DNA from: Betaproteobacteria bacterium
Lineage (GTDB): Bacteria; Pseudomonadota; Gammaproteobacteria; Burkholderiales; Burkholderiaceae_C
Reading direction: 5' to 3'
Assembly (NCBI GenBank): GCA_009919175.1
Contig: RGCL01000015.1
Location: 1-50,910 of the forward strand
Length of the DNA stretch: 50,910 bases
Every line of letters starts with the position of its first letter. Position 1 is the stretch's first letter. Made by a program: the position numbers and the translations under genes. The notes under the pieces are model-generated. The model was not told where the DNA came from and did no database searches. It saw only the letters and a program-made list of their open reading frames with translations. Shown in pieces: positions 1-13,644 of the stretch.

Positions 1-894
1 CCTGCGCCTCAAACCATGGCGCAGCCAGCGCCCGCGCCCGCACCACCCAGCGCTACAGTGCGCGCCAACCCAGCTGTTGATGCCCCTGTGGCGATGTCTC
101 AACGCCCGGCACTTGCCCAAGCTGCACCATTGCCCAGCCCACCGGCAGCCCATCTGCAATTCGCCAATCGTCGCGCCCTGGTGATTGGCAACGACAACTA
201 CCGTTCGGTTGATCCCCTGAAAAATGCCGTGTCAGATGCCAGAGCCATGGCAACAGCACTGGAGAGATCGGGCTACAAGGTGAGCCTGCACCTGGATCTG
301 GATGAGAAACGCTTCAAGCAGGCCCTGCGCACCTTCCGCTACGAAGTCCAGGGCGGCGACGAGGTGATGTTCTTCTTTGCGGGTCACGGTGTGGAAATTG
401 CAGGCGCCAATTTTTTGCTCCCTGTAGACATCCGCGTGTCAGGCACCGATAACGACAAGGACCGCGATCAACTCAGAGAGGACTCGATTGATCTCAAACG
501 CTTCATGTCAGACTTGGAAGAGCGCAAAACCAAATTCGCCCTGGCCGTCATCGATGCCTGCCGAGAGGACCCCTTTCCCAAAGAGAAAGGCAGCCGGTCC
601 ATCTCGACCAAAGGAGGCTTGGCTCAGACGACACCCGCAACAGGTCAAATGATCATCTTCTCTGCGGGCGCTGGGCAATTGGCCATCGACAGCCTGGGCG
701 CCAACGATCCGTCCAAGAATGGATTGTTCACCCGGGTGTTTTTATCGGAGATGGACAAGCCTGGTGTACCGGTGGACCGGGTGCTTAAAAACGTTCGTAC
801 CGAAGTCAGCCGTTTGGCCAAAACCATGGGTCGCACCCAAACCCCCGCGATCTACGATCAATCCGAGGGGGATTTTTATTTCCGGCTTCGGTAG
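1..894 (+). CDS. Caspase-like (peptidase C14) domain protein, 5' end outside window
   Basis: The reading frame is open to the left edge, so the start probably lies outside the window; the first ATG inside it is at 16. Counting from that ATG, residues 1-45 are a Pro/Ala-rich low-complexity stretch, like a linker or the end of an upstream segment. Residues 50-290 form a caspase-like p20 fold: strand RALVIGNDNY, catalytic His124 in FFFAGHGVE and catalytic Cys182 in AVIDACRED. Both dyad residues are present, so a cysteine peptidase is expected, normally cutting after Arg/Lys or Asp in this superfamily. It converges with the LysR gene to its right. The Pro/Ala-rich linker resembles that of the SUMF1-like lipoprotein at 3905-5170, which hints at a shared envelope location; this is inference. 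The substrate is unknown. Confidence 0.85.
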   Translation, partial: PAPQTMAQPAPAPAPPSATVRANPAVDAPVAMSQRPALAQAAPLPSPPAAHLQFANRRALVIGNDNYRSVDPLKNAVSDARAMATALERSGYKVSLHLDLDEKRFKQALRTFRYEVQGGDEVMFFFAGHGVEIAGANFLLPVDIRVSGTDNDKDRDQLREDSIDLKRFMSDLEERKTKFALAVIDACREDPFPKEKGSRSISTKGGLAQTTPATGQMIIFSAGAGQLAIDSLGANDPSKNGLFTRVFLSEMDKPGVPVDRVLKNVRTEVSRLAKTMGRTQTPAIYDQSEGDFYFRLR

Positions 895-3904: not shown

Positions 3905-5170
3905 CTATGGCATTTCACGCGCCAGGCGAAATCCCGTGGCTGTGCCTCGATTGCCCTCGGAGGCCTTGCCACGATAGGCGCTGCGCGCAAAGGAGGCAGG
4001 CAAATCCCAGCCGCCACCTCGCATGGACCGGCTGCGGCAATTGAGTGGTGCAGCTTGATCCGGGTTCTGTGGCAATTGAGCCTGCCAACAGTCCCCCACC
4101 CACTCCATGACATTGCCATGCATATCGTAAATACCCCAGGCATTGGGGGCAAAGCTGCCCACGGGTGCAGTGAAGGCAAAGCCGTCCTTGCACGATTGAG
4201 CGGGCAAGCGTGGACGCTGTTGAACCAGGGAGGCATCTGCCGCATTGGCTTGCGCACAAATCCCTTGAGGCTCCTCTTTCCAGGCATAAGCTGAAGGTGA
4301 ACCAGAGCGGGCCGCATATTCCCATTCACTCTCTTTGGGGAGTCGATAGCGTTGGCCGGTCTTACGGCTCAACCACTCTGCGTAGGCTTGCGCATCCAGC
4401 CAACTCACGCACACCACGGGATGCTGATCGGTCTGGGGATAGCCAGGATTTTGCCAATCGGCATTGGGCAGTTTGTTGTACCCGTCACCTTCCCAGTTCA
4501 AACAACCGGCAGCTGCGCGGTGGCCTGTTTCTGCTTCGAATGCACGCCACTGACCTCGCGTGATCTCTGTCTGGCCGATGGCAAATGTGGTCATGCTGAG
4601 CTTGACCATGGGCGACTCGTCAGCGTCCCGGCCTTTCTCGGTTGCAGAAGAACCCATCACGAATGAGCCCGATGGCAACTGGATCATGAGGGGGCAATCT
4701 GCACAATCGCGAAAAGACCTGAGGGCTTTCTGAGGTGCCACTGCAGCGACCTCGCTGGGTGCAGCGGGTGCTGGCTTGGCCATTTGAGGGGATTCGCTGG
4801 TTCGGGTTGAAGGCGCCTTGGCGGGCTCTTGAACTGGCGGAGATGGTTTGGCTGCGGGCGTTTGAGCCACAGTTTTGGGTGCAGTGTTGACAGCGGCGGG
4901 TGTGGGTGAGGACGCTTGAACTTGCGTGCCGGCTTGAGGCGCAGTCTGTGCAGGCGATGTCGTTGGCAGCACAGGCGCTGGCTCAGATGGAGGTCCAGGT
5001 TCAGGTGCAGGGGCAAGTGCGGGCGCTGGCTGAGCAGGCGCAGAAGCCGTCTGGTTGGACGAGCCCGTCAGGGAATCCGCCAGCCGATTGAGGATTTGCT
5101 GACACCCACTCAGCACGCACATCGCTATCAGCGTGAACGCCAAGGAGCGCAACAGAGTCAGCAGGCGCAT
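3905..5170 (-). CDS. Lipoprotein with SUMF1/FGE-like domain, last gene of secreted operon
   Basis: The 421-residue product begins with a lipoprotein signal (hydrophobic helix, lipobox LSGC, acylated Cys23). A Pro/Ala/Thr-rich linker follows to about residue 150, then a formylglycine-generating-enzyme-like fold (PSGSFVMGS, TEITRGQWRAFE, HPVVCVSWLDAQAYAEWLS, LPKESEWEYAAR, NAWGIYDMHGNVMEWVGD, SMRGGGWD, TGFRLA). True FGE has two active cysteines just after the RGGS motif; here that stretch reads GGGWDLPASFARSAYR with no cysteine. Catalysis of FGE type is therefore unlikely, and a binding role at the outer membrane is more plausible (inference). The ATG at 5170 is preferred because it leads straight into the signal peptide; a TTG at 5188 would overlap the M48 gene. 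Last gene of the operon. Confidence 0.85.
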   Translation of the reverse strand: MRLLTLLRSLAFTLIAMCVLSGCQQILNRLADSLTGSSNQTASAPAQPAPALAPAPEPGPPSEPAPVLPTTSPAQTAPQAGTQVQASSPTPAAVNTAPKTVAQTPAAKPSPPVQEPAKAPSTRTSESPQMAKPAPAAPSEVAAVAPQKALRSFRDCADCPLMIQLPSGSFVMGSSATEKGRDADESPMVKLSMTTFAIGQTEITRGQWRAFEAETGHRAAAGCLNWEGDGYNKLPNADWQNPGYPQTDQHPVVCVSWLDAQAYAEWLSRKTGQRYRLPKESEWEYAARSGSPSAYAWKEEPQGICAQANAADASLVQQRPRLPAQSCKDGFAFTAPVGSFAPNAWGIYDMHGNVMEWVGDCWQAQLPQNPDQAAPLNCRSRSMRGGGWDLPASFARSAYRGKASEGNRGTATGFRLAREMP

Positions 5171-5184
5171 GGGGCGCACCGAAT

Positions 5185-5949
5185 TCAAATGGCCTGGATG
5201 AACTTCTGAAAGCGAGCCTGTCGGGTCGGGTTGGGCTTGTCCGACGGACGTGGCAATTTGTCAATGCCCGACTGCAACAGCATGTCCAAACGCTCCGCTG
5301 GCGACGGATGGGTGGAGAACAACAGCTCCGCCCTGGGGTCATTGCCTTTGAATCGTTGGAGTTTTTCCAGCACATTGATGGCCGCCACAGGGTCGTAACC
5401 GGCGCGGGTCATGATCTCCACGCCCAAGCGGTCGGACTCAAATTCAGCCGATTTGTCCAGACCGCGCGCATAGATTTGCCCGCTGGCCTGAGCCAACTTG
5501 CCCGTATCGCTGTCCTGAGTCACCGCTTGCAATCCTTTGGCAGCCTGATCAGCGAGTCGCTGACGCTGAACCACCTGATAGTGGTGACGACGGGTCACAT
5601 GCGCCACTTCGTGAGCCAGAATGAAAGCCAGCTCATCTTCACTCTCCAGCGATTTGAGCAAGCCGGAGGACAAAAGCACATAGCCACCCGGCATGGCAAA
5701 GGCGTTGATCGCATCGGACTTGATGACACCAAAATGCCATTTGTAATTGGCACCCGAATGCGCAGACAGCGCCTGACCCAGCACATTCACATATTGCTGA
5801 GCTGCATCGGCAGCCACCAAGGGTGCAGCGCCCAGAACCTGTGCCGCAGCCAGTTTGCCCACCTTTTCTTCATCGGTTTGCGCCATGGCCGTCAGACCCA
5901 GGCTCAACGCCAAGCCACCGACCAGGCTGTGTTTGAAGTTACCAGTCAT
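5185..5949 (-). CDS. M48 family periplasmic zinc metalloprotease
   Basis: From the chosen ATG the product is 254 residues: a signal peptide ending near AMA-Q, then an M48 peptidase domain with the zinc motif HEVAH at 113-117, a typical RRHH extension, and the downstream SAEFESDRLGVEIM segment carrying the glutamate ligand. It ends with the family's SPAERLDML region. Relatives include LoiP/BepA-type envelope quality-control proteases, though no TPR domain follows here. The start at 5949 lies five bases after AAAGG and overlaps the end of the SH3-domain gene; a GTG at 6000 would add a hydrophilic tail before the signal peptide. In the operon it may mature or police the other secreted proteins (inference). 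Confidence 0.87.
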   Translation of the reverse strand: MTGNFKHSLVGGLALSLGLTAMAQTDEEKVGKLAAAQVLGAAPLVAADAAQQYVNVLGQALSAHSGANYKWHFGVIKSDAINAFAMPGGYVLLSSGLLKSLESEDELAFILAHEVAHVTRRHHYQVVQRQRLADQAAKGLQAVTQDSDTGKLAQASGQIYARGLDKSAEFESDRLGVEIMTRAGYDPVAAINVLEKLQRFKGNDPRAELLFSTHPSPAERLDMLLQSGIDKLPRPSDKPNPTRQARFQKFIQAI

Positions 5950-6511
5950 CATTGCCTTTCTTTTTGGCATCGCTTGGAGCCGAATTGGAAGAACCGCCAC
6001 CAGCCGCTGCAGGCGCAGCTGGTGCAGCGGGCTTGGGCACGGTCAGTTGAATTTTGTCTTTGATGGGGGTGATGCCGCCTGCCACCAAAAAGGCTTGCAC
6101 AGTCTGAGGCTCCGCCGTGAGCCCTTCGAGCTTGGTGGCTTCATTGAGGTTGGGTTGACCGCTGATCAAGTCCTTGGCTGAAAGGCCTCTGGCTGCCGAG
6201 GTGGCCACGATGTTGCCCGTTCCCAAACGACCGGTGTCAATGGCTGTGGCTCCACCGGTCGCACCAGCAAAGTTGATTTGCGAGACCTTGAGCCACCCCG
6301 TTTTTCCGGAGGCATCGACCTCGACCCAAAAGCCTTGGCGCTTGACCGTTTTGACAGCCGCACCCGCACTGAGTTTGATGTTGGTGGGTTTGCCCTCAGG
6401 CTTGTCCAGCAACACCGCTTCTTCTCGAACGGTTTGAGCATGCAGGGCAAACGACAAAAGCCCCAGGCACACAGCAAGGGCATGGCGATGAAAGCGATGG
6501 AAAGTGCTCAT
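5939..6511 (-). CDS. Secreted SH3-like domain protein with NDDW tail
   Basis: The 190-residue protein has a signal peptide (about 1-26, ending ALHAQ) and a bacterial SH3-like domain at about 27-80 (VREEAVLLDKPEGKP, GAAVKTVKRQGFWVEVDASGKTGWLKVSQI). A central region of unknown fold follows, then a Pro/Ala/Gly/Ser-rich linker, ending in KKKGNDDW. SH3_3-type domains often bind peptidoglycan or peptides. The NDDW ending is also found on the CsgG-like protein of the same operon. The ATG at 6511 is two bases after the stop codon of the upstream gene, so translation is probably coupled, and its end overlaps the start of the M48 gene. Confidence 0.8.
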   Translation of the reverse strand: MSTFHRFHRHALAVCLGLLSFALHAQTVREEAVLLDKPEGKPTNIKLSAGAAVKTVKRQGFWVEVDASGKTGWLKVSQINFAGATGGATAIDTGRLGTGNIVATSAARGLSAKDLISGQPNLNEATKLEGLTAEPQTVQAFLVAGGITPIKDKIQLTVPKPAAPAAPAAAGGGSSNSAPSDAKKKGNDDW

Positions 6512-6513
6512 GT

Positions 6514-7062
6514 TCAATATTCTTTGGAATAAGCGCGAACCTTAAAGCCACCACCGTTGGCATCGGTGGATGGTGCAGGGCTGGCAGGCGGCGTGGACGC
6601 GTTGGGCAAAGAGGGCAAGGCCGACGCACTGGGTGATGTTGTCTCAGGCGGGGCTTGTGGTAGTGGGGTGGCAGCCACAGGCGGTGGAGAAGACGCCACG
6701 GTCTGGACCACACAATCGGGCTTTTGCTTTTTCAGGCGTATCACCACCTCCATGGATCCCGAGGATTCATACGAATGGATCAGGTTTACACCCTGAAGAC
6801 TGACCTCCAGGCGCTGATTGGGTTTGGGTGAGAAATTGCAGAGCCAGTGACCTGCCATGACGCTGGCGCGATTGATCAGCAGTCGCTCCAAGGCCTGAGT
6901 GGCGCCACGACGCTGATCCATCACCCGAACATAGATTTGCCCATCCAACTCCGTGACTTGATTGGCGGGCAAACGATTGAGCAAATCGGGTGACAAAGTA
7001 GCTTGCGCTGCGACCACTCCAGGCAAAAGCAAAGCAGCACCCACCAGGAGCAGTCGATTCAT
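6514..7062 (-). CDS. Secreted protein of unknown function with KEY tail
   Basis: I do not recognise this 182-residue protein. It has a clear signal peptide (MNRLLLVGAALLLPGVVAAQ), a compact folded part at about 20-118 with two cysteines (in WLCNF and DCVVQ) that could pair in the periplasm, a Pro/Ser/Thr-rich linker, and the ending GGGFKVRAYSKEY. The linker-plus-aromatic ending resembles the C-termini of three neighbouring genes. It lies 23 bp after the upstream gene and 2 bp before the SH3-domain gene, inside the same operon. Confidence 0.75.
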   Translation of the reverse strand: MNRLLLVGAALLLPGVVAAQATLSPDLLNRLPANQVTELDGQIYVRVMDQRRGATQALERLLINRASVMAGHWLCNFSPKPNQRLEVSLQGVNLIHSYESSGSMEVVIRLKKQKPDCVVQTVASSPPPVAATPLPQAPPETTSPSASALPSLPNASTPPASPAPSTDANGGGFKVRAYSKEY

Positions 7063-7085
7063 GTCAAACCCGTCAAGCGCGGTGA

Positions 7086-8567
7086 TCAGAAGTCACGCGA
7101 CACAGCACCCTGACCCGAATTCGAGTTACTGGTGCGAGGCGCAGCTGTAGGAGCACCGCCGCCAGAGGGCGCAGCAGGGGTGGCGCCACCACCTGAGTTC
7201 ATGCGGTTGACCGCCTCGCCCGTCTTGGCACCGCTGGCCTGATTGAAGACTTTCAGCTGGCCAGCCAATTGGGCTGATGCAGCCTTCCACTCCATGACCA
7301 CACCCACCACAGGACCGTTGTTGGCCGGATGCAGCGATTCCCATTGCCATGCTTCCTGCATGCCCTTGATGGGGAGTTTCTCGGCAATGGCAGAGACCTT
7401 GTTGCGGTTTTGCTCTTCCATTTTGACTTCGCTGGATTCGTCCTCAAACTCGGTGGACTCCTCTTTCTGAAGCATGTCGCTGGTGGAGGCAATGGCCTCA
7501 CCCAAGAAAGCACGGATCATTCCCTGTGCTTGCAGACGTGCCATCTTGTAGGCCAGGTCTTTGCTCTGCTGGGATTTGGATTGGGGCTGAGCTTGCGCGA
7601 AGGCCAGCAGCACGTACTCGCCTTTTTCATTGCGAACCATCTGCGTGCCGTAGGTCGACAGGAGGGTCAGATTTTCTTTGGGGATGTGGTTGTCCACAGG
7701 AATACCAGGCTCACCCTTGGGAATCAAAGCATAGTTGCCAGTGATCACCGCATCCGCAATCTCGTGCAGCTTGCGCGTCCAAACCGTCACCACGCCAATC
7801 TGTCCTTGACCATTGGAGGGGTTCTGTTCAAAGGAAGCCAAGACCTTGATGCCTGTGCAACGAGCACGCGCAGTGGCGCGAGTCTTGTTCTTGAAGCTCG
7901 AGGTGTTCAACACTGCTTTGACCTGCTGCTCAGAAACCGGCTTGTTGGGATCGATGCCCTTTTTAGCCAGCTCTTCCTTCATTTTGTTTTCTAGGATTTT
8001 TTCGCCATAAAGGCCTGCTGTCTGAAGCGATGTGGGTGCATTGCGGGCTTTGACGTCTGAGTTCATGGCCTTGGCCACCTGGATGGCACCCTCTTGGGCC
8101 AAGCCCTCACGCTGCAAACGGGCCGCATCCGCAGCGGCACGCTCGGCACCGGGCGAGCCCATGTCCTGTGTCATTTCGCTGGAAACACGCGTCTCCATGA
8201 ATTCAGCGCATTTTTGCTTGACGTCCAGCATGGCTTTGTTGAAAGCAATGTTGCGAGCCAGCACAAAGTTCTTGTCAGAAGGCGGTACTGAGATGGTGCC
8301 CTTGCCCAGCCAAACCAGAATGCTGCGACCGCCCTCTTCGTTTTCACCCTGACGCAATTTTTGCGTGCGCAAAAAAGCCTGCATGCGCTGATCGACAGTT
8401 TCGCGACCATCAATGCTGTTGGGCAAAGTGGGCAATGGCTTTTGCTCCATTTCAACCTTGGCTTCCTGAGCAAGACCCGTGCTTGCAAATGCAGCGATCA
8501 GAGCACCACCGAATAACCATTGGGTGGCCTGCTTTGTAGAGAGTTTTTTCATGATGTGTGCTTTCAT
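7086..8567 (-). CDS. Large secreted protein of unknown function with RDF tail
   Basis: This 493-residue protein has a signal peptide (cleavage near GLAQ-E, residue 34). The body contains two helix-rich stretches, about 85-140 (LGKGTISVPP, then ARNIAFNKAMLDVKQKCAEFM) and about 335-440 (KDLAYKMARLQAQGMIRAFLGEA). These look like two copies of an LPP20/FlgT-N type fold; that is my inference from pattern, not an established hit. The end is a Gly/Ala/Pro/Ser-rich linker closing with AVSRDF. Start options are the ATG at 8567 and another at 8552; the latter leads directly into MKKLSTK of the signal peptide. It begins 4 bp after the CsgG-like gene. Function unknown. Confidence 0.75.
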   Translation of the reverse strand: MKAHIMKKLSTKQATQWLFGGALIAAFASTGLAQEAKVEMEQKPLPTLPNSIDGRETVDQRMQAFLRTQKLRQGENEEGGRSILVWLGKGTISVPPSDKNFVLARNIAFNKAMLDVKQKCAEFMETRVSSEMTQDMGSPGAERAAADAARLQREGLAQEGAIQVAKAMNSDVKARNAPTSLQTAGLYGEKILENKMKEELAKKGIDPNKPVSEQQVKAVLNTSSFKNKTRATARARCTGIKVLASFEQNPSNGQGQIGVVTVWTRKLHEIADAVITGNYALIPKGEPGIPVDNHIPKENLTLLSTYGTQMVRNEKGEYVLLAFAQAQPQSKSQQSKDLAYKMARLQAQGMIRAFLGEAIASTSDMLQKEESTEFEDESSEVKMEEQNRNKVSAIAEKLPIKGMQEAWQWESLHPANNGPVVGVVMEWKAASAQLAGQLKVFNQASGAKTGEAVNRMNSGGGATPAAPSGGGAPTAAPRTSNSNSGQGAVSRDF

Positions 8568-8571
8568 GTGT

Positions 8572-9843
8572 TTACCAGTCGTCGTTGTCTTTGGACTTGG
8601 AAGAGCCCGATCCTGATGGACTGCCCATGCCCGGGAGCTGAGGCAAATTCACCTGGACCTTCAAGGGTGCATTGGGCTCGTCAGGCAAAACCCGAGCCAA
8701 TACAGAACCCGATTGGAATGGAGAGGGCAACCTGCCTGAAACGATTTTGGCTGTGGCCGTGCGATCGGTCACGCTGGTGATCTCGGCGCGCCCAACTTCA
8801 CGCTCCTCTTGACCCAGGGACTCCTTGGTGTAGGGGTCCACCAGGTTTTGACCCAGGCTCACCAGGCGGTAGATGCGACCCACTTGCACCGTGTCCCCGC
8901 CCTGATTCAAGGTGACCTGATCGCCATTGGCACCCACCACGGCAATGGGGTAGATGGCCATGTTGATGACCTGCCCGATGTCGGTGCCGATGTCGTTGGC
9001 GTACTCGCTCAAGGAAGTGTTGCTGTTCAAGCGGCCGGGGTTGAGGTAGGTCTGCGCAAACTTGATCTGTCCGGTGGCAATGTCAATGACGCGCACATCG
9101 ATGGACACCGGTGCAGAGACCCGGGTCACCACGCGCCCCGTGACCCTTTGCTGCTGAATTTGCTGGGCAGAAAACTCCTTGAGTGCGGCCAGCACCATGT
9201 AATCAGCCCCCACCCGCATGCCCACCTTGACGGTTTCCTCGATGGGCGCATTGCGGGAATTGACGCGCGAGAGTTCTCTGCTACTTGTCTCGGTGTAGCG
9301 TCGGTCAATCATGGCGAACTTGCGCGTCTGGGTGAGATAAGCCTCCAGGGAAGATGACACGCTTTCGGCAAACGGGATCGCGTCGGGCTTGCCACTGGCA
9401 GGACCCACCAGGGTCAACGGCATGACGGCCAATTTCAAGCGCTTGAGCTGCTCGGATTGCTTATATGTAGGGATCACAGCCTTGATCTTGACAAACGCAC
9501 GTCCCGAGCCCGGACTGGTGCCAGATTCCAGCACCGAGTAAGACTTGACCACCCCGCGCGTGAGACGCTCGATGTTTTGCTTGAAGTCTTGCTCCAGCGT
9601 GGTGTTGCCACCCTTGGTGACCTCACTCATGGACATGGTGGTTGCGCTCGACAGCTTCATGCCCCCGACTTGACCAATCGCGTTTTCAATCGCATCGATC
9701 ATGGCGGCCGATGGATCCCCCCCATTGCCGGTCGCCACCACTTCCCGATAAACGATTTGGGCGTGAGAAGGCATGACAAGCGCCCCAGCCAGCAGCGCCG
9801 CTGACAACAGGCAGCGATTCAATTGGAGGAGGAAGGCCTTCAT
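8572..9843 (-). CDS. CsgG/FlgT-like three-domain periplasmic protein with NDDW tail
   Basis: The 423-residue product has a signal peptide without a lipobox cysteine (PSHA-Q). Residues about 30-130 resemble the FlgT N-terminal domain (DPSAAMIDAIENAIGQVGG, LTRGVVKSYSVLES). Residues 135-300 are a CsgG/TolB-N-like domain (KLAVMPLTLVG, FAESVSSSLEAYLTQTRKFAMIDR, VGADYMVLAALKEF, DIATGQI). Residues 305-400 resemble FlgT-C (YPIAVVGANGDQVTLNQGGDTVQVG, GRAEITSVTDRTATAKI). This order is that of FlgT, the flagellar H-ring protein, but no flagellar gene is nearby. Unlike CsgG it is not predicted to be acylated. The tail ends KSKDNDDW. The ATG overlaps the stop codon of the upstream gene (TGATG). A ring or pore-like scaffold is possible but unproven. 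Confidence 0.8.
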   Translation of the reverse strand: MKAFLLQLNRCLLSAALLAGALVMPSHAQIVYREVVATGNGGDPSAAMIDAIENAIGQVGGMKLSSATTMSMSEVTKGGNTTLEQDFKQNIERLTRGVVKSYSVLESGTSPGSGRAFVKIKAVIPTYKQSEQLKRLKLAVMPLTLVGPASGKPDAIPFAESVSSSLEAYLTQTRKFAMIDRRYTETSSRELSRVNSRNAPIEETVKVGMRVGADYMVLAALKEFSAQQIQQQRVTGRVVTRVSAPVSIDVRVIDIATGQIKFAQTYLNPGRLNSNTSLSEYANDIGTDIGQVINMAIYPIAVVGANGDQVTLNQGGDTVQVGRIYRLVSLGQNLVDPYTKESLGQEEREVGRAEITSVTDRTATAKIVSGRLPSPFQSGSVLARVLPDEPNAPLKVQVNLPQLPGMGSPSGSGSSKSKDNDDW

Positions 9844-10949
9844 CACTTGAGGTTCAACTGGTTGACCACCACATCGGCAGCCACCTTGGCAGCATTGGCC
9901 AAGGCAGCACGACTGGCATCGTTGAGTTTTTCTGCACGACCGCTGAAGGTTCGATTGGCAGAACCAATGCTGCGGGCAAAGCGGCCAGTCAGGTCATAGG
10001 CCGTGATGTTCATGTTGCCAGTGGCCAACCACAAACCGGTGTTGGGGTCCGAGCGGTAACCGTCCACCTCAATCGAAGCGAGGATGAATTTGCTCAATTG
10101 GCATTCTTTGATTTTCTTGAAGGTATCGGTCCGGATATTGGAAGGTAATTGCCCCGTTTCGGATTCTGCATACATCTTGGAGAAGGGATCGTTGTCTGAC
10201 ACCCCACAGTTGCTCACCAATTCTTCCCAGGGCACAGTCTTGATGTTGTTGTTGGTGAGGGTTTCACCCACGCGGTTTTGCAAGTCATCGATGTTGGCCC
10301 AGGCCACATACTTGATGCGATCGCGTTTGTTTTCTTGTGACCCGCCAGTCACAGTCTTGGAAGTTTGGGTCACAGAAACCGCGTCTGCCGAGGCCTCGGC
10401 AGAACCTGAGCGATTGCTGGCCGATGCATCGGCGCTGGCGGAAGTCCCGCTGGTGCCCACCGTGGCCTCTGCACGCTTGGTGACCTTGGTGTCAAACGAA
10501 GTTTGGGAGTCCGCCACGCGAGCCATGACCAAAAAAGCGATGTCATCGGCATCAGAGGTCTTGCCGCCGCCAGAGGATTTGGCCGTTTGGCGCAAGCGGC
10601 TTTCCACCATGGATTCGTTGATGGCCGCCTTGATGCTGATGGTGCAGGTGGAAGAAAAACCGGAAGTGCACTTCTCATCCACCACCGTCACGTCCACCAC
10701 ATAGGAGTTGATGTCGTCCAAGAAGGTTTTTTCGTTGGAAATGATGTTGTCCAGCTTGGCGCCAGACAGCGTGCCCAGATAGTTTTTCCAGGCCGCCACC
10801 TTGGCCTTGGTGAGCGCCGCTTCCTTGCCGGAGTCGGTGGCCTGGCCACGCACAAATTTTTGTTGCGCCATGGCCATGGAAGAACCCAAGGCCAGTGAGC
10901 AGATCAGGACGGAGTGAAGAAACAGATTTTTGAGTTGAGGCAGGTTCAT
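9843..10949 (-). CDS. Secreted protein of unknown function, FlgT-N-like start and Ser/Ala linker
   Basis: From the ATG at 10949 the protein has 368 residues, with AAGGG eight bases upstream overlapping the stop of the previous gene. The signal peptide ends AMA-QQ near residue 29. Residues 30-120 (FVRGQATDSGKEAALTKAK) resemble an LPP20/FlgT-N fold with two cysteines, C94 and C102, likely disulfide-bonded. Residues 160-205 are a Ser/Ala/Thr-rich low-complexity linker. Residues 208-368 form a second domain (IKYVAWANIDDL, LSKFILASIEVDGY, TGNMNITAYDLTGRF) resembling a TolB-N/CsgG-type fold. These fold assignments are inference. Its last bases overlap the start of the CsgG-like gene, suggesting that the two products work together. 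Confidence 0.75.
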   Translation of the reverse strand: MNLPQLKNLFLHSVLICSLALGSSMAMAQQKFVRGQATDSGKEAALTKAKVAAWKNYLGTLSGAKLDNIISNEKTFLDDINSYVVDVTVVDEKCTSGFSSTCTISIKAAINESMVESRLRQTAKSSGGGKTSDADDIAFLVMARVADSQTSFDTKVTKRAEATVGTSGTSASADASASNRSGSAEASADAVSVTQTSKTVTGGSQENKRDRIKYVAWANIDDLQNRVGETLTNNNIKTVPWEELVSNCGVSDNDPFSKMYAESETGQLPSNIRTDTFKKIKECQLSKFILASIEVDGYRSDPNTGLWLATGNMNITAYDLTGRFARSIGSANRTFSGRAEKLNDASRAALANAAKVAADVVVNQLNLK

Positions 10950-10954
10950 GATGA

Positions 10955-12202
10955 TTACCCTTGAGTTTTGGCACACAGTTCGGCAAGTCGGGGCAAGGCA
11001 GGTGCAACGACACTGAGCTTGACTTCGACTGAAGCCAAGGTGTTTTCGTTGCGCGTGATCAGGCCCTTGAGCAAGTTGGTGAGTGTCCTGGTGATGAGCC
11101 GGTCATAGAAAACCATGTCCCGCTCAGGTGTGTCGTCTTCTGTGGACTGCAACGGGATCCTATCCTCACTGGTTGACATGGCCAGGACATTGAGCAACTT
11201 GTTTTCAGGCAGATTGGAGAACATGTCAAACACCAGCAGGCGAATGACGGCGGTGCGCTTGACGATGGTGACCCCGCGCTGAGAGCTGTGCACCACCTGC
11301 TTGTCGAGGTCCCGCAGCACAATTTCAAAGCGCAAATCCGAATCGGGGATGTCGATCAACTGCTGGGCAGCAAGGTCGTCCGAGAATTTGACGGCATATC
11401 GCTTGGCCAGCGCATCGTTTTCCTGGAAGGGCAACAGCGGGATGTCCAGGTTGTCGCAAATGGATGAGCTGGTGGAAAAGCCCAGCAACTCCGCATTCAA
11501 GACCTTATCGATCTTGAATTCCACCAATTTGGCTTTGGCGTCCTTATGGATGCTCGATCCGGTGACACGCGCAAAGAAGTTGCTGCTGAAGCCCTTGTCC
11601 CATTTGTTGAAGCGTCCCAGGAAATGCGAGAAGGCCTGGCCATAGCTCACAAAAGCCTGATCCATCACACCCAGGGCCTTGCCGCGCAAGTCCTTGAGGT
11701 CGCCACCCGGTCGTTCCATGCGCAGCATGAAGGGGAAGGAGGACAACACCCGCCAGCCTGTGCTTTTGGAGTAGGTCAGGATCATGCCCACGCCCGACAT
11801 GTAGACCAACAGGGTGTTGGCGTTTTGACCGTCCTTCTCCAGGCGGGCACCCACATAGGTCTCATAGTCATGTGCAAAACCCAGCAACAAGTCCTCTCCA
11901 AACTCCACCGAGTTCTTGAATTGAACCTGAGCAGCATTTTGTGCGCTGAGTTGGCGCTTGAGGGGATCACGCATGAACGCAAAGGCGTCGCTGCTGGTCA
12001 GGTCGAGGTTGTATTTTTTCTTGACGAAGTCGCGCGTCAGATCAAAGCGAGCCTGCCCTGCCCCGCCATTGAGTCCAAACCCCGTCCACACTGGAGGCGA
12101 CTTGGGTCTGACCTTTTGTGCAGCAGGCTGTGCAAAAGCCCGCCAAGGCATAGCCAGCAGAGCCATCAATGCAGATGCCACAGTGCGGCGGCCTGGGTTC
12201 AT
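10955..12202 (-). CDS. Exported protein of unknown function, possible Tat signal
   Basis: I do not recognise this 415-residue protein. The start at 12202 gives MNPGRRTVASALMALLAMPWRAFAQ, an export signal with a twin arginine; the match to the Tat consensus is partial. The mature part is mixed alpha/beta with no repeats (FDLTRDFVKKKYNLDL, LLGFAHDYETYVGARLEKDGQ, LLVYMSGVGMILTYSKSTGWRVLSSFPF). The gene ends at 10955, six bases before the next start codon. A TTG at 12223 could add seven residues but would put polar residues in front of the signal. It is the second gene of the operon. Confidence 0.72.
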   Translation of the reverse strand: MNPGRRTVASALMALLAMPWRAFAQPAAQKVRPKSPPVWTGFGLNGGAGQARFDLTRDFVKKKYNLDLTSSDAFAFMRDPLKRQLSAQNAAQVQFKNSVEFGEDLLLGFAHDYETYVGARLEKDGQNANTLLVYMSGVGMILTYSKSTGWRVLSSFPFMLRMERPGGDLKDLRGKALGVMDQAFVSYGQAFSHFLGRFNKWDKGFSSNFFARVTGSSIHKDAKAKLVEFKIDKVLNAELLGFSTSSSICDNLDIPLLPFQENDALAKRYAVKFSDDLAAQQLIDIPDSDLRFEIVLRDLDKQVVHSSQRGVTIVKRTAVIRLLVFDMFSNLPENKLLNVLAMSTSEDRIPLQSTEDDTPERDMVFYDRLITRTLTNLLKGLITRNENTLASVEVKLSVVAPALPRLAELCAKTQG

Positions 12203-12225
12203 GTGAGATGCCGTCACGATCAACC

Positions 12226-13644
12226 TCAGTCAGTGTATTTCTTGCTCAGATCAGCCACCGCTGTTTCAGCTTTCTTGGCTTCAACTTTGGGGATATCTTT
12301 GGCCCTCATGGCTTGCTCCCACTTGGTAGAGATCACGCAACTCTGAATCAAAGCGTTCATGGATTGGGTCAACGCAGGTTTGGCCGCCAGCATTTTCCCG
12401 ATGTCCCCGCTCATGGCGGTTGCAACCATGGATTGGGCAATTTCAGAATAGGACTGGGAGATGATGCCCTGGGCCACAAGGCGCTTTTCCTGAGCCTGGA
12501 TCAGCATTTTTTTCTGCTCTTCGTCCACGGTGCCGACCTTGGCAAACATCTTGATCTGCATGGCCTGAACTTCAGGGCTCACGTCCTCGAACACCGGCTT
12601 TTCACCTGGGGCGCTCTCGCGCAAGGACTTGAGGCTTTCAATTTGGCCGGCAAGCTGGTTGCCGCCTTGGGTCTTGCGAATGATGTTGTTGCCAATCTCG
12701 ATCGACTCTTGGTTGATTTTGTTGGCCTCAGCGTACATCTTGCCCACTCGGGTGTTGGGCAACTGGCGTGCGTAGGCTTGCTGAGCTTGCTCGATTTGCA
12801 TCCCGGATTGTGCTGGCCCTTGCCACTGCTGGCGATAAGGCATGTTGGGTTCGTTGAAGTACAAATCCCTGGCCGTCGCAAGATGAATTTCCTCGTAGTT
12901 TCTGTCGTCAAACTCTTTTGGAGCTCCGCCATCGGTTTGACGGTATCTGGATTTCAAGTTACCCGCTGTGACAAGGTCGCCCGTGGCCTGGTTGAGGTTT
13001 TTAGGGCCAAATTCCCCATAGGCATTCAAGCGCGCACGGAACACCAAAGCAGTGAAGTGCTCGGTTGAAATTGCCTTTTGATAGAGCTCGCGCCAACGGT
13101 CTTTGCTTACCGACAATTCTGGTGCCTGCAGGTGCAGAAAAACCAAGGCCATGAGGGCATCCGAGCGTTCTTGCTGGTCATTGGCACGTGAAAGCTGGAT
13201 CAGTGCAGCCAGGGTGTCTGGCTCAGGGAAGGCCAGGAAGTTGTCGTAAATGGCCCTGACTTTGGCGGTCTCAAACGAAGCCTGAAAAAACTTGGCATTG
13301 GGGAAGGTCTTGCTGATGTTGGCTCGCCGGAATGCTTTTTGAAACTCATCCTGAAGCGACTCCAGATCTGCAACTTTGAATTCGCTGCCAATCACCCCCT
13401 TGTCAATCTTCATCCGCGCCAGCACACCGGCCTGTTCATTGCACCATTGATCGCTGGGCTTGAGGCCACCGCCTTTGCCGCCACCCGATCCACCCATGCT
13501 GGGCATTTGACCGCCGCCTCCCTGATTGGGCACTTGCATCTTCTGAAGTTGCTGGAGAAGGTTGCCAAATTGGGCTTGAGCGGCAAACGGGGCTGCACTC
13601 AACAACGTGACCAACAGGAGTGGCAAAGGCTTGATGTGTTTCAT
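12226..13644 (-). CDS. Exported helical protein of unknown function, first gene of secreted operon
   Basis: The 472-residue protein has a signal peptide (MKHIKPLPLLLVTLLSAAPFAAQA), a Gln/Met/Gly-rich segment at about 25-65 (QGGGGQMPSMGGSGGGKGGG), and a long, mostly helical body with two cysteines, in DQWCNEQ and IQSCVIS. The C-terminal part is rich in Lys and Ala helices and ends SKKYTD. No known domain is recognised. It leads a chain of nine tightly spaced minus-strand genes and is preceded by an AT-rich region that should contain their promoter. Confidence 0.75.
   Translation of the reverse strand: MKHIKPLPLLLVTLLSAAPFAAQAQFGNLLQQLQKMQVPNQGGGGQMPSMGGSGGGKGGGLKPSDQWCNEQAGVLARMKIDKGVIGSEFKVADLESLQDEFQKAFRRANISKTFPNAKFFQASFETAKVRAIYDNFLAFPEPDTLAALIQLSRANDQQERSDALMALVFLHLQAPELSVSKDRWRELYQKAISTEHFTALVFRARLNAYGEFGPKNLNQATGDLVTAGNLKSRYRQTDGGAPKEFDDRNYEEIHLATARDLYFNEPNMPYRQQWQGPAQSGMQIEQAQQAYARQLPNTRVGKMYAEANKINQESIEIGNNIIRKTQGGNQLAGQIESLKSLRESAPGEKPVFEDVSPEVQAMQIKMFAKVGTVDEEQKKMLIQAQEKRLVAQGIISQSYSEIAQSMVATAMSGDIGKMLAAKPALTQSMNALIQSCVISTKWEQAMRAKDIPKVEAKKAETAVADLSKKYTD

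What the first reader, a model, noticed from the sequence alone, without database searches (positions are those of the whole stretch)
3905..13644. Nine-gene operon for an all-exported protein set: possible undescribed envelope system
Seen: nine minus-strand genes, mostly overlapping or separated by under 25 bp, each with a signal peptide or lipobox. Recognisable parts are a CsgG/FlgT-like protein, an SH3-like protein, an M48 protease and a SUMF1-like lipoprotein; the other five have no family I know. Known: CsgG-like proteins build outer-membrane pores or rings, M48 proteases process envelope proteins, and SH3-like domains bind peptidoglycan or peptides. Inferred: the set forms a periplasmic or outer-membrane assembly, perhaps for secretion or surface structure. 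I know of no described system with this composition.
Basis: partly seen in the sequence, partly recalled or inferred. Interest (0 to 1): 0.8.

Follow-up and report, generated by a model that had tools for sequence, protein, structure and literature searches.

The report
Possible kinase-controlled cell-wall building system
The nine exported-protein genes look like one half of an undescribed bacterial envelope system whose other half encodes a protein kinase, a phosphatase, a membrane receptor and a spare cell-wall synthesis pair, so these bacteria may run an extra, signal-controlled wall-building machine tied to proteins outside the inner membrane.

Summary
In detail: nine tightly packed minus-strand genes, all with export signals by eye. 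Eight (G1-G8) keep the same order in five related loci (Limnohabitans Hippo3 and four MAGs); the SUMF1 lipoprotein G9 moves or is absent. In three of those loci the operon runs on into DUF4337 and a Ser/Thr kinase, and in the two readable further into CHASE2, PP2C, a third SEDS (FtsW/RodA-like) protein, a PBP-like transpeptidase and a double-FHA protein. The window's own genome carries this second half on two other contigs. Kinase, phosphatase and SEDS keep expected motifs; the transpeptidase keeps SxxK and KTG, but SxN was not found. G4 is FlgT/CsgG-like; G2's C-terminal half resembles the CsgG/LptE fold; G5 (DUF6844) is homologous to a solved Francisella protein next to an annotated LpoB. 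G4, G5 and G7 end in conserved acidic-aromatic tips (G6 in three of six). Best reading: a phospho-regulated peptidoglycan synthase coupled to a periplasmic/outer-membrane assembly. Linkage is well supported in three genomes and partial in the others; function is inferred. G5 was in 0 of 398 other family genomes sampled. Ten literature searches found no described match.

The parts
12226..13644 (-). G1, 472 aa, signal peptide; no Pfam family; all-helical model, with a Sel1/TPR-like stretch (about residues 100-286) and C-terminal long helices
10955..12223 (-). G2, 422 aa, RR (Tat-like) signal by eye; no Pfam family above cut-off; C-terminal half with a CsgG/PelC/LptE/FlgT-like fold
9843..10949 (-). 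G3, 368 aa from the ATG, signal peptide; no Pfam family
   Evidence: (62-84% identity to five relatives); weak profile similarity to the G4 N-terminus (E 0.0008, 24% probability)
8572..9846 (-). G4, FlgT/CsgG-like protein, signal peptide; C-terminal tip DDW
   Evidence: CsgG in 9 of 9 members; C-terminal part to TsaP 6ve2, E 1.7e-6
7086..8567 (-). G5, DUF6844 protein, signal peptide; C-terminal tip SRDF
   Evidence: (4qvr FTT_1539c, E 2e-27)
6514..7062 (-). G6, 182 aa, signal peptide, fast-evolving; tip KEY
5939..6517 (-). G7, SH3-like protein, signal peptide; tip DDW
   Evidence: (SH3 models below cut-off in the four copies scanned)
5185..5949 (-). G8, M48 metalloprotease, signal peptide (likely ATG at 5949; ORF open from 6000)
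   Evidence: HEVAH motif seen in the translation
3905..5188 (-). G9, SUMF1/FGE-sulfatase-like lipoprotein; variable position: upstream of G1 in L008, L009 and L010; not found in the held DNA of L011 and L012

Best explanation
The operon is the exported half of a two-part envelope system. Inner half (on contigs C234 and C220 of the same genome; directly downstream of G8 in relatives): DUF4337, a Ser/Thr kinase with C-terminal membrane segments, a CHASE2 receptor, a PP2C phosphatase, a third SEDS protein, a PBP-like transpeptidase and an FHA adaptor. Proposed working: CHASE2 senses something outside the inner membrane; the kinase phosphorylates Thr-Pro-Leu motifs in its own tail and in the FHA protein; FHA binding switches the SEDS-PBP pair on or off; PP2C resets it. 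The exported set (FlgT-like G4, CsgG-fold G2, DUF6844 G5, Sel1-like G1, SH3-like G7, protease G8, SUMF1 lipoprotein G9) forms a periplasm/outer-membrane assembly that guides or activates that synthase, as LpoB does for PBP1b (recalled), and the acidic-aromatic C-terminal tips of G4, G5, G7 and partly G6 dock onto a common partner. Shown: gene content, order, linkage in three to five genomes, most catalytic motifs, tip conservation. Inferred: peptidoglycan as product, signal flow, assembly, docking.
For: G1-G8 collinear in L008-L012. DUF4337 and kinase genes follow G8 in L008, L009 and L010, and full inner cassettes are read in Hippo3 (L033) and L010's genome (L035). The window genome has the inner half on C234/C220 in the same order; its kinase passes the Pfam cut-off (9.1e-10). 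Kinase HGDxKxDN and the D of DFG in 4 of 4 genomes, PP2C NQDS/VADG/SDG/LDD in the 2 genomes aligned; SEDS Asp and PBP SxxK/KTG in 3 of 3, aligned with housekeeping copies. It is a third SEDS in 3 of 3 genomes. TPL motifs in 4 of 4 kinases and 3 of 3 FHA proteins. DUF6844 lies next to LpoB and a FlgT/CsgG-like gene in distant proteobacterial L022 and L024. Francisella: FTT_1540c is listed as LpoB (PMC8149597, passage) and FTT_1537c-1540c as one operon (PMC4696196, passages). Tips: G5 ends in F or Y in 110 of 113 homologues; G4 and G7 in [DE]W in 6 of 6; background 4 of 208 ORFs end in [DE][FWY], two of the four being DUF6844 proteins.
Against: The inner half is not found whole in all carriers: kinase in 4 of 6 genomes, CHASE2 orthologue full length in 4 of 6 plus a 45-residue stump at a contig end in L009's genome, PBP-like in 3 of 6. 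L011's genome shows none of these three markers and L012's only CHASE2; these are MAGs, so loss and missing sequence cannot be told apart. The PBP SxN motif was not found. SEDS and PBP-like are very divergent (Pfam E 3e-8 to 5e-13, and 8e-3 to 6e-5), and the genome scan with the transpeptidase model found the PBP-like gene in only 1 of 3. The SEDS gene in the window genome is two overlapping ORFs. TPL also occurs singly in other proteins of the set. None of three distant G4 relatives (L022, L024, L025) has the tip. No similarity of G2 or G4 to the LpoB proteins by profile comparison. In the distant cassettes read (L022, L024) I recognised no SEDS or kinase gene nearby. No interaction or product was tested.
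Confidence: 0.47

Rival explanations
1. A secretion or surface-structure machine: the CsgG/FlgT-fold proteins form a ring or conduit, and the SEDS-PBP pair only remodels the wall around it.
Against: No outer-membrane channel or major surface subunit recognised among the nine; CsgF absent in 3 of 3 genomes; the fold matches are near the method's background and a shared fold shows no function.
Confidence: 0.25
2. An envelope-stress sensor in which the divergent SEDS and PBP-like proteins are inactive receptors rather than synthases, feeding the CHASE2/kinase/FHA pathway.
For: Strong divergence, SxN motif not found, split SEDS in the window genome.
Against: The SEDS Asp and PBP SxxK and KTG are kept in 3 of 3 genomes aligned.
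Confidence: 0.15
3. Two unrelated systems that happen to be neighbours in some genomes.
For: In the window genome the halves lie on different contigs; in L012 CHASE2 is adjacent but divergent, and kinase and PBP-like genes were not found in that genome; none of the three markers was found in L011's genome.
Against: Contiguous in L008, L009 and L010 (as far as contigs reach); both kept in the window genome though apart; of 398 other family genomes none has G5 and none a CHASE2 hit better than E 2e-57 at 30% identity.
Confidence: 0.1
4. A known system (curli or flagellar H-ring).
For: CsgG domain hit.
Against: CsgF not found in 3 of 3 genomes; no flagellar gene recognised by eye among the ORFs listed for L008-L012.
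Confidence: 0.03

Closest known systems
Actinobacterial-type Ser/Thr kinase - PP2C - RodA - PbpA - FHA gene cluster (recalled: pknB/pstP/rodA/pbpA/fhaAB)
   Same: Kinase, PP2C, SEDS, PBP-like and FHA genes in one cluster
   Different: Burkholderiales; no PASTA domain found on the four kinases scanned; CHASE2 and DUF4337 added; accompanied by eight exported proteins
DUF6844 - LpoB - FlgT/CsgG-like cassette of other proteobacteria; Francisella FTT_1537c-1540c appears to be one such operon
   Same: DUF6844 and the adjacent FlgT/CsgG-like protein are homologous to G5 and G4 (tblastn; profiles without shared sequences 99.7% and 100%); FTT_1539c is homologous to G5
   Different: No LpoB family gene in the window operon; no kinase/SEDS/PBP gene recognised near the cassettes read (L022, L024); FTT_1537c and FTT_1538c were not compared
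CHASE2 - SH3-like - caspase clusters in other Burkholderiaceae
   Same: CHASE2 relative (27-34% identity) in 10 of 10 fetched neighbourhoods, an SH3-like exported protein in 6 of 10
   Different: No hits to G1-G6, G8, G9, kinase, PP2C, SEDS, PBP-like or FHA shown in any of the 10; 5 of 10 have caspase-like proteins
FlgT (flagellar H-ring) / TsaP / CsgG
   Same: G4: CsgG in 9 of 9 members, FlgT_M in 4 of 9 at sub-threshold E, C-terminal similarity to TsaP
   Different: No flagellar, pilus or curli partner genes recognised in the loci

Membership tests
Curli system | CsgG-family protein | tested here: met
   PF03783 E 7e-6, above cut-off
Curli system | CsgF present | tested here: not met
   0 of 3 genomes; of 14 control genomes E. 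coli alone rings
Curli system | CsgA/CsgB curlin repeats | not tested
Flagellar H-ring FlgT | FlgT three-domain architecture | tested here: inconclusive
   FlgT_M only sub-threshold in 4 of 9; TsaP-like C-terminal part
Flagellar H-ring FlgT | encoded with flagellar genes | tested here: inconclusive
   by eye none among the listed ORFs of L008-L012; no scan for flagellar families
Actinobacterial-type STK-PP2C-SEDS-PBP-FHA cluster | Ser/Thr kinase with catalytic motifs | tested here: met
   motifs in 4 of 4 genomes; Pfam Pkinase above cut-off for the window genome (9.1e-10), below it for the three relatives
Actinobacterial-type STK-PP2C-SEDS-PBP-FHA cluster | PP2C phosphatase | tested here: met
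   (L010 and window genome above cut-off)
Actinobacterial-type STK-PP2C-SEDS-PBP-FHA cluster | SEDS with catalytic-position Asp | tested here: met
   that this Asp is catalytic is recalled
Actinobacterial-type STK-PP2C-SEDS-PBP-FHA cluster | PBP with SxxK, SxN and KTG | tested here: inconclusive
   SxxK and KTG in 3 of 3, SxN not found
Actinobacterial-type STK-PP2C-SEDS-PBP-FHA cluster | FHA protein | tested here: met
   PF00498: Hippo3 2e-16 with two stretches, L035 1.1e-18 with two, window genome 2.4e-10 with one
Actinobacterial-type STK-PP2C-SEDS-PBP-FHA cluster | PASTA-domain kinase | tested here: not met
   no PASTA hit in four kinases (the window genome's is the N-part only)
DUF6844-LpoB-FlgT cassette | DUF6844 protein next to a FlgT/CsgG-like protein | tested here: met
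DUF6844-LpoB-FlgT cassette | LpoB family gene in the operon | tested here: not met
   only a sub-threshold LpoB hit inside G4

The most novel reading that the evidence does not exclude
A Gram-negative, Ser/Thr-kinase-controlled third peptidoglycan synthase (SEDS + PBP-like + CHASE2 + FHA) that works through a dedicated trans-periplasmic, outer-membrane-linked assembly of FlgT/CsgG-fold proteins held together by a shared acidic-aromatic C-terminal tip, i.e. a new class of regulated wall-building machine.
Probability: 0.28. Interest if true: 0.87.

Novelty: new variant of a known kind. Interest (0 to 1): 0.72.

Why it matters
Kinase-phosphatase-FHA control of a SEDS-PBP pair is, to my knowledge (recalled), mainly a Gram-positive theme. 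Finding it in Burkholderiales, in one run of genes with a conserved eight-gene exported module, would give a Gram-negative case where inner-membrane wall synthesis, phospho-signalling and periplasmic partners can be tested together. It also gives a context for DUF6844, a family with a solved structure but no function known to me, one member of which is recognised by sera raised against Francisella outer-membrane vesicles (PMC10963506, passages), and it proposes a C-terminal tip as a periplasmic docking code.

Tried and rejected
Viral origin: 81 stretches of viral contigs matched a pattern but none encodes a relative of the DUF6844 protein. Defence system: PADLOC gave only weak hits for the nine proteins (best E 0.005); the caspase-like ORF at the contig edge matched 'caspase' (1.6e-14). 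Curli: CsgF absent. Homology of G1 or G2 to the large lipoproteins next to LpoB/DUF6844 in L022 and L024: none by profile comparison. G2 to G4 by profile: none, so their likeness rests on fold alone. G3: no PDB match and no Pfam match above cut-off. My first profile comparison of G4/G5 with the distant copies was circular, as those copies sat in both alignments; it was repeated without them. Promoter and terminator scan: fewer matches than shuffles. CHASE2 as a marker elsewhere: 253 of 399 genomes hit, but the best outside hit was E 2e-57 at 30%; 10 neighbourhoods, picked from the better matches, hold a different cluster. In one search the L009 copy of G2 and the window genome's PP2C dropped out of the family alignments. 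Of four distant proteobacterial DUF6844 loci fetched, two (L022, L024) were scanned with Pfam; in L023 my ORF picker chose wrong frames. Families absent from structure-match lists are not thereby excluded. Literature: ten searches found no paper on this composition; only open-licence PMC papers are held.
Full report
OBSERVATION. The nine ORFs are present at the stated place, on one strand, with gaps of at most 23 bp and small overlaps. All translations begin with an export signal by eye; G9 has a lipobox, G2 an RR motif. Pfam finds CsgG in G4, DUF6844 in G5, M48 in G8 and FGE-sulfatase in G9; G7 matches SH3 models only below the curated cut-off; G1, G2, G3 and G6 match nothing above cut-off.

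CONSERVATION. A pattern scan of one genome for each of 84,980 species with a DUF6844 alignment gave 14 confirmed loci. Five are Burkholderiales: Limnohabitans sp. Hippo3 (L008) and four MAGs (L009-L012). In all five, G1-G8 lie in the same order and strand (G1 is cut by the contig end in L011). The SUMF1 lipoprotein G9 is upstream of G1 in L008, L009 and L010 and was not found in the DNA held for L011 and L012, so it is an accessory with a changing place. In the other nine loci (Kiritimatiellae, Verrucomicrobia, one uncultured bacterium) only the DUF6844 protein of the nine was recognised by tblastn. The system is sporadic: G5 was found in 1 of 150 genomes of the order and 1 of 399 of the family, each time the window's own; five other genomes of the same genus lack it. 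The DUF6844 family as such was in 5 of 398 genomes of the phylum. Yet 113, 145 and 143 protein clusters of G5, G2 and G1 were found in public sets from capped candidate lists.

THE SECOND HALF. Reading past G8 showed DUF4337 and a kinase-like gene in L008, L009 and L010, and CHASE2 in L008 and L010 (L009's contig ends, and another contig of that genome starts with the first 45 residues of CHASE2). In the longer Hippo3 (L033) and L010-genome (L035) stretches the order goes on: PP2C, FTSW_RODA_SPOVE, transpeptidase-like, a small ORF and a protein with two FHA stretches (PP2C of Hippo3 through the alignment). In L012 a CHASE2 gene lies divergently just upstream of G1. The window's contig lacks these genes, but the genome has them: DUF4337 and the kinase N-part at the end of contig C234 (L032), and the kinase C-part, CHASE2, PP2C, SEDS (two overlapping ORFs), PBP-like, the small ORF, an FHA protein and a second DUF4337 on C220 (L031), in the same order. 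The break falls inside a run of Thr-Pro-Leu repeats of the kinase, a likely reason for the assembly gap. Over six carriers: kinase in 4 of 6; CHASE2 orthologue full length in 4 of 6 plus the stump; PBP-like in 3 of 6. L011's genome shows none of the three and L012's only CHASE2; both are MAGs. Other family genomes have CHASE2 proteins (253 of 399 hit), but the best outside hit is E 2e-57 at 30% identity, against 49-58% among carriers. Ten of those neighbourhoods hold a different cluster with SH3-like (6 of 10) and caspase (5 of 10) hits and none of the other parts.

CATALYTIC MOTIFS (meanings recalled). Kinase: HGDxKxDN and the Asp of the DFG position in 4 of 4 genomes; PP2C: NQDS, VADG, SDG and LDD in the two genomes aligned, with NQD and VADG also visible in the window genome's translation. 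Two of the three genomes checked have two strong housekeeping SEDS genes plus the divergent one; in the window genome the housekeeping hits are one full gene and two complementary contig-end fragments. Aligned with housekeeping copies, the divergent SEDS keeps the Asp of the TDFxxA motif (SDYTFTA or SDYTMTA), and the PBP-like protein keeps SxxK and KTG, each in 3 of 3; SxN was not found. The transpeptidase model found the PBP-like gene in only 1 of 3 genomes in the genome scan. So activity is plausible, not proven.

C-TERMINAL TIPS. G4 and G7 end in Asp/Glu-Trp in 6 of 6 carriers, G5 in RDF in 6 of 6, and G6 in KEY, NEY or NDY in 3 of 6 (others TEH and EIN). Of 113 G5 homologues, 107 end in F and 3 in Y, with D at the second-last place in 104, while the preceding Ala/Gly/Ser/Pro linker varies. 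Distant DUF6844 proteins end in DDF, GEW or DAF, but three distant G4 relatives lack the tip. Among 208 mechanically chosen ORFs (some from other genes of the system), 4 end in [DE][FWY], two of them DUF6844 proteins. The closest analogy I know is the tip of single-stranded-DNA-binding protein (recalled); the partner here is unknown.

MECHANISM. Best reading: a signal-controlled third wall synthase joined to a periplasmic/outer-membrane assembly, with CHASE2 as sensor, kinase/PP2C/FHA as switch, SEDS/PBP-like as effector, and the exported set as activator or guide. TPL motifs occur in 4 of 4 kinases (two or more each) and twice in 3 of 3 FHA proteins, but single TPL triplets also occur in other proteins of the set. 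Gene content, order, linkage, motifs and tips are shown; product, signal flow, contacts and rings are inferred. The main rival is a surface or secretion machine with its own wall-remodelling pair.

NOVELTY. Ten literature searches found no description of this composition (calls listed under Tried and rejected). The parts belong to known kinds; the combination and the exported module appear new.

Noticed in passing
window 16-894 (+): A caspase-like (Peptidase C14, E 5.5e-32) ORF at the contig edge; caspase hits also accompany the CHASE2-SH3 clusters of other Burkholderiaceae (5 of 10 neighbourhoods).
   Followed up: partly
L032 6402-7440 and L031 1-441: Kinase with tandem Thr-Pro-Leu repeats before its membrane segments; the contig break lies in the repeats. 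TPL occurs twice in each of the three FHA proteins read.
   Followed up: partly
L031 3086-3952 and 3946-4971: The SEDS gene of the window genome is split into two overlapping ORFs, one ORF in Hippo3 and L010: real fission or a frameshift/assembly error.
   Followed up: no
L056-L065: A separate CHASE2 cluster with SH3-like and caspase-like exported proteins in Burkholderiaceae, apparently a cousin system.
   Followed up: partly
L013, L016, L020, L021: Kiritimatiellae/Verrucomicrobia DUF6844 proteins lie beside other proteins with signal peptides by eye; in L013 one has a weak FlgT_N hit (E 0.014), suggesting a third version of the cassette.
   Followed up: partly
L024 5470-6900 (-): An FGE-sulfatase + LprI protein two genes from the DUF6844/FlgT-like pair in a more distant proteobacterium, echoing G9.
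   Followed up: no
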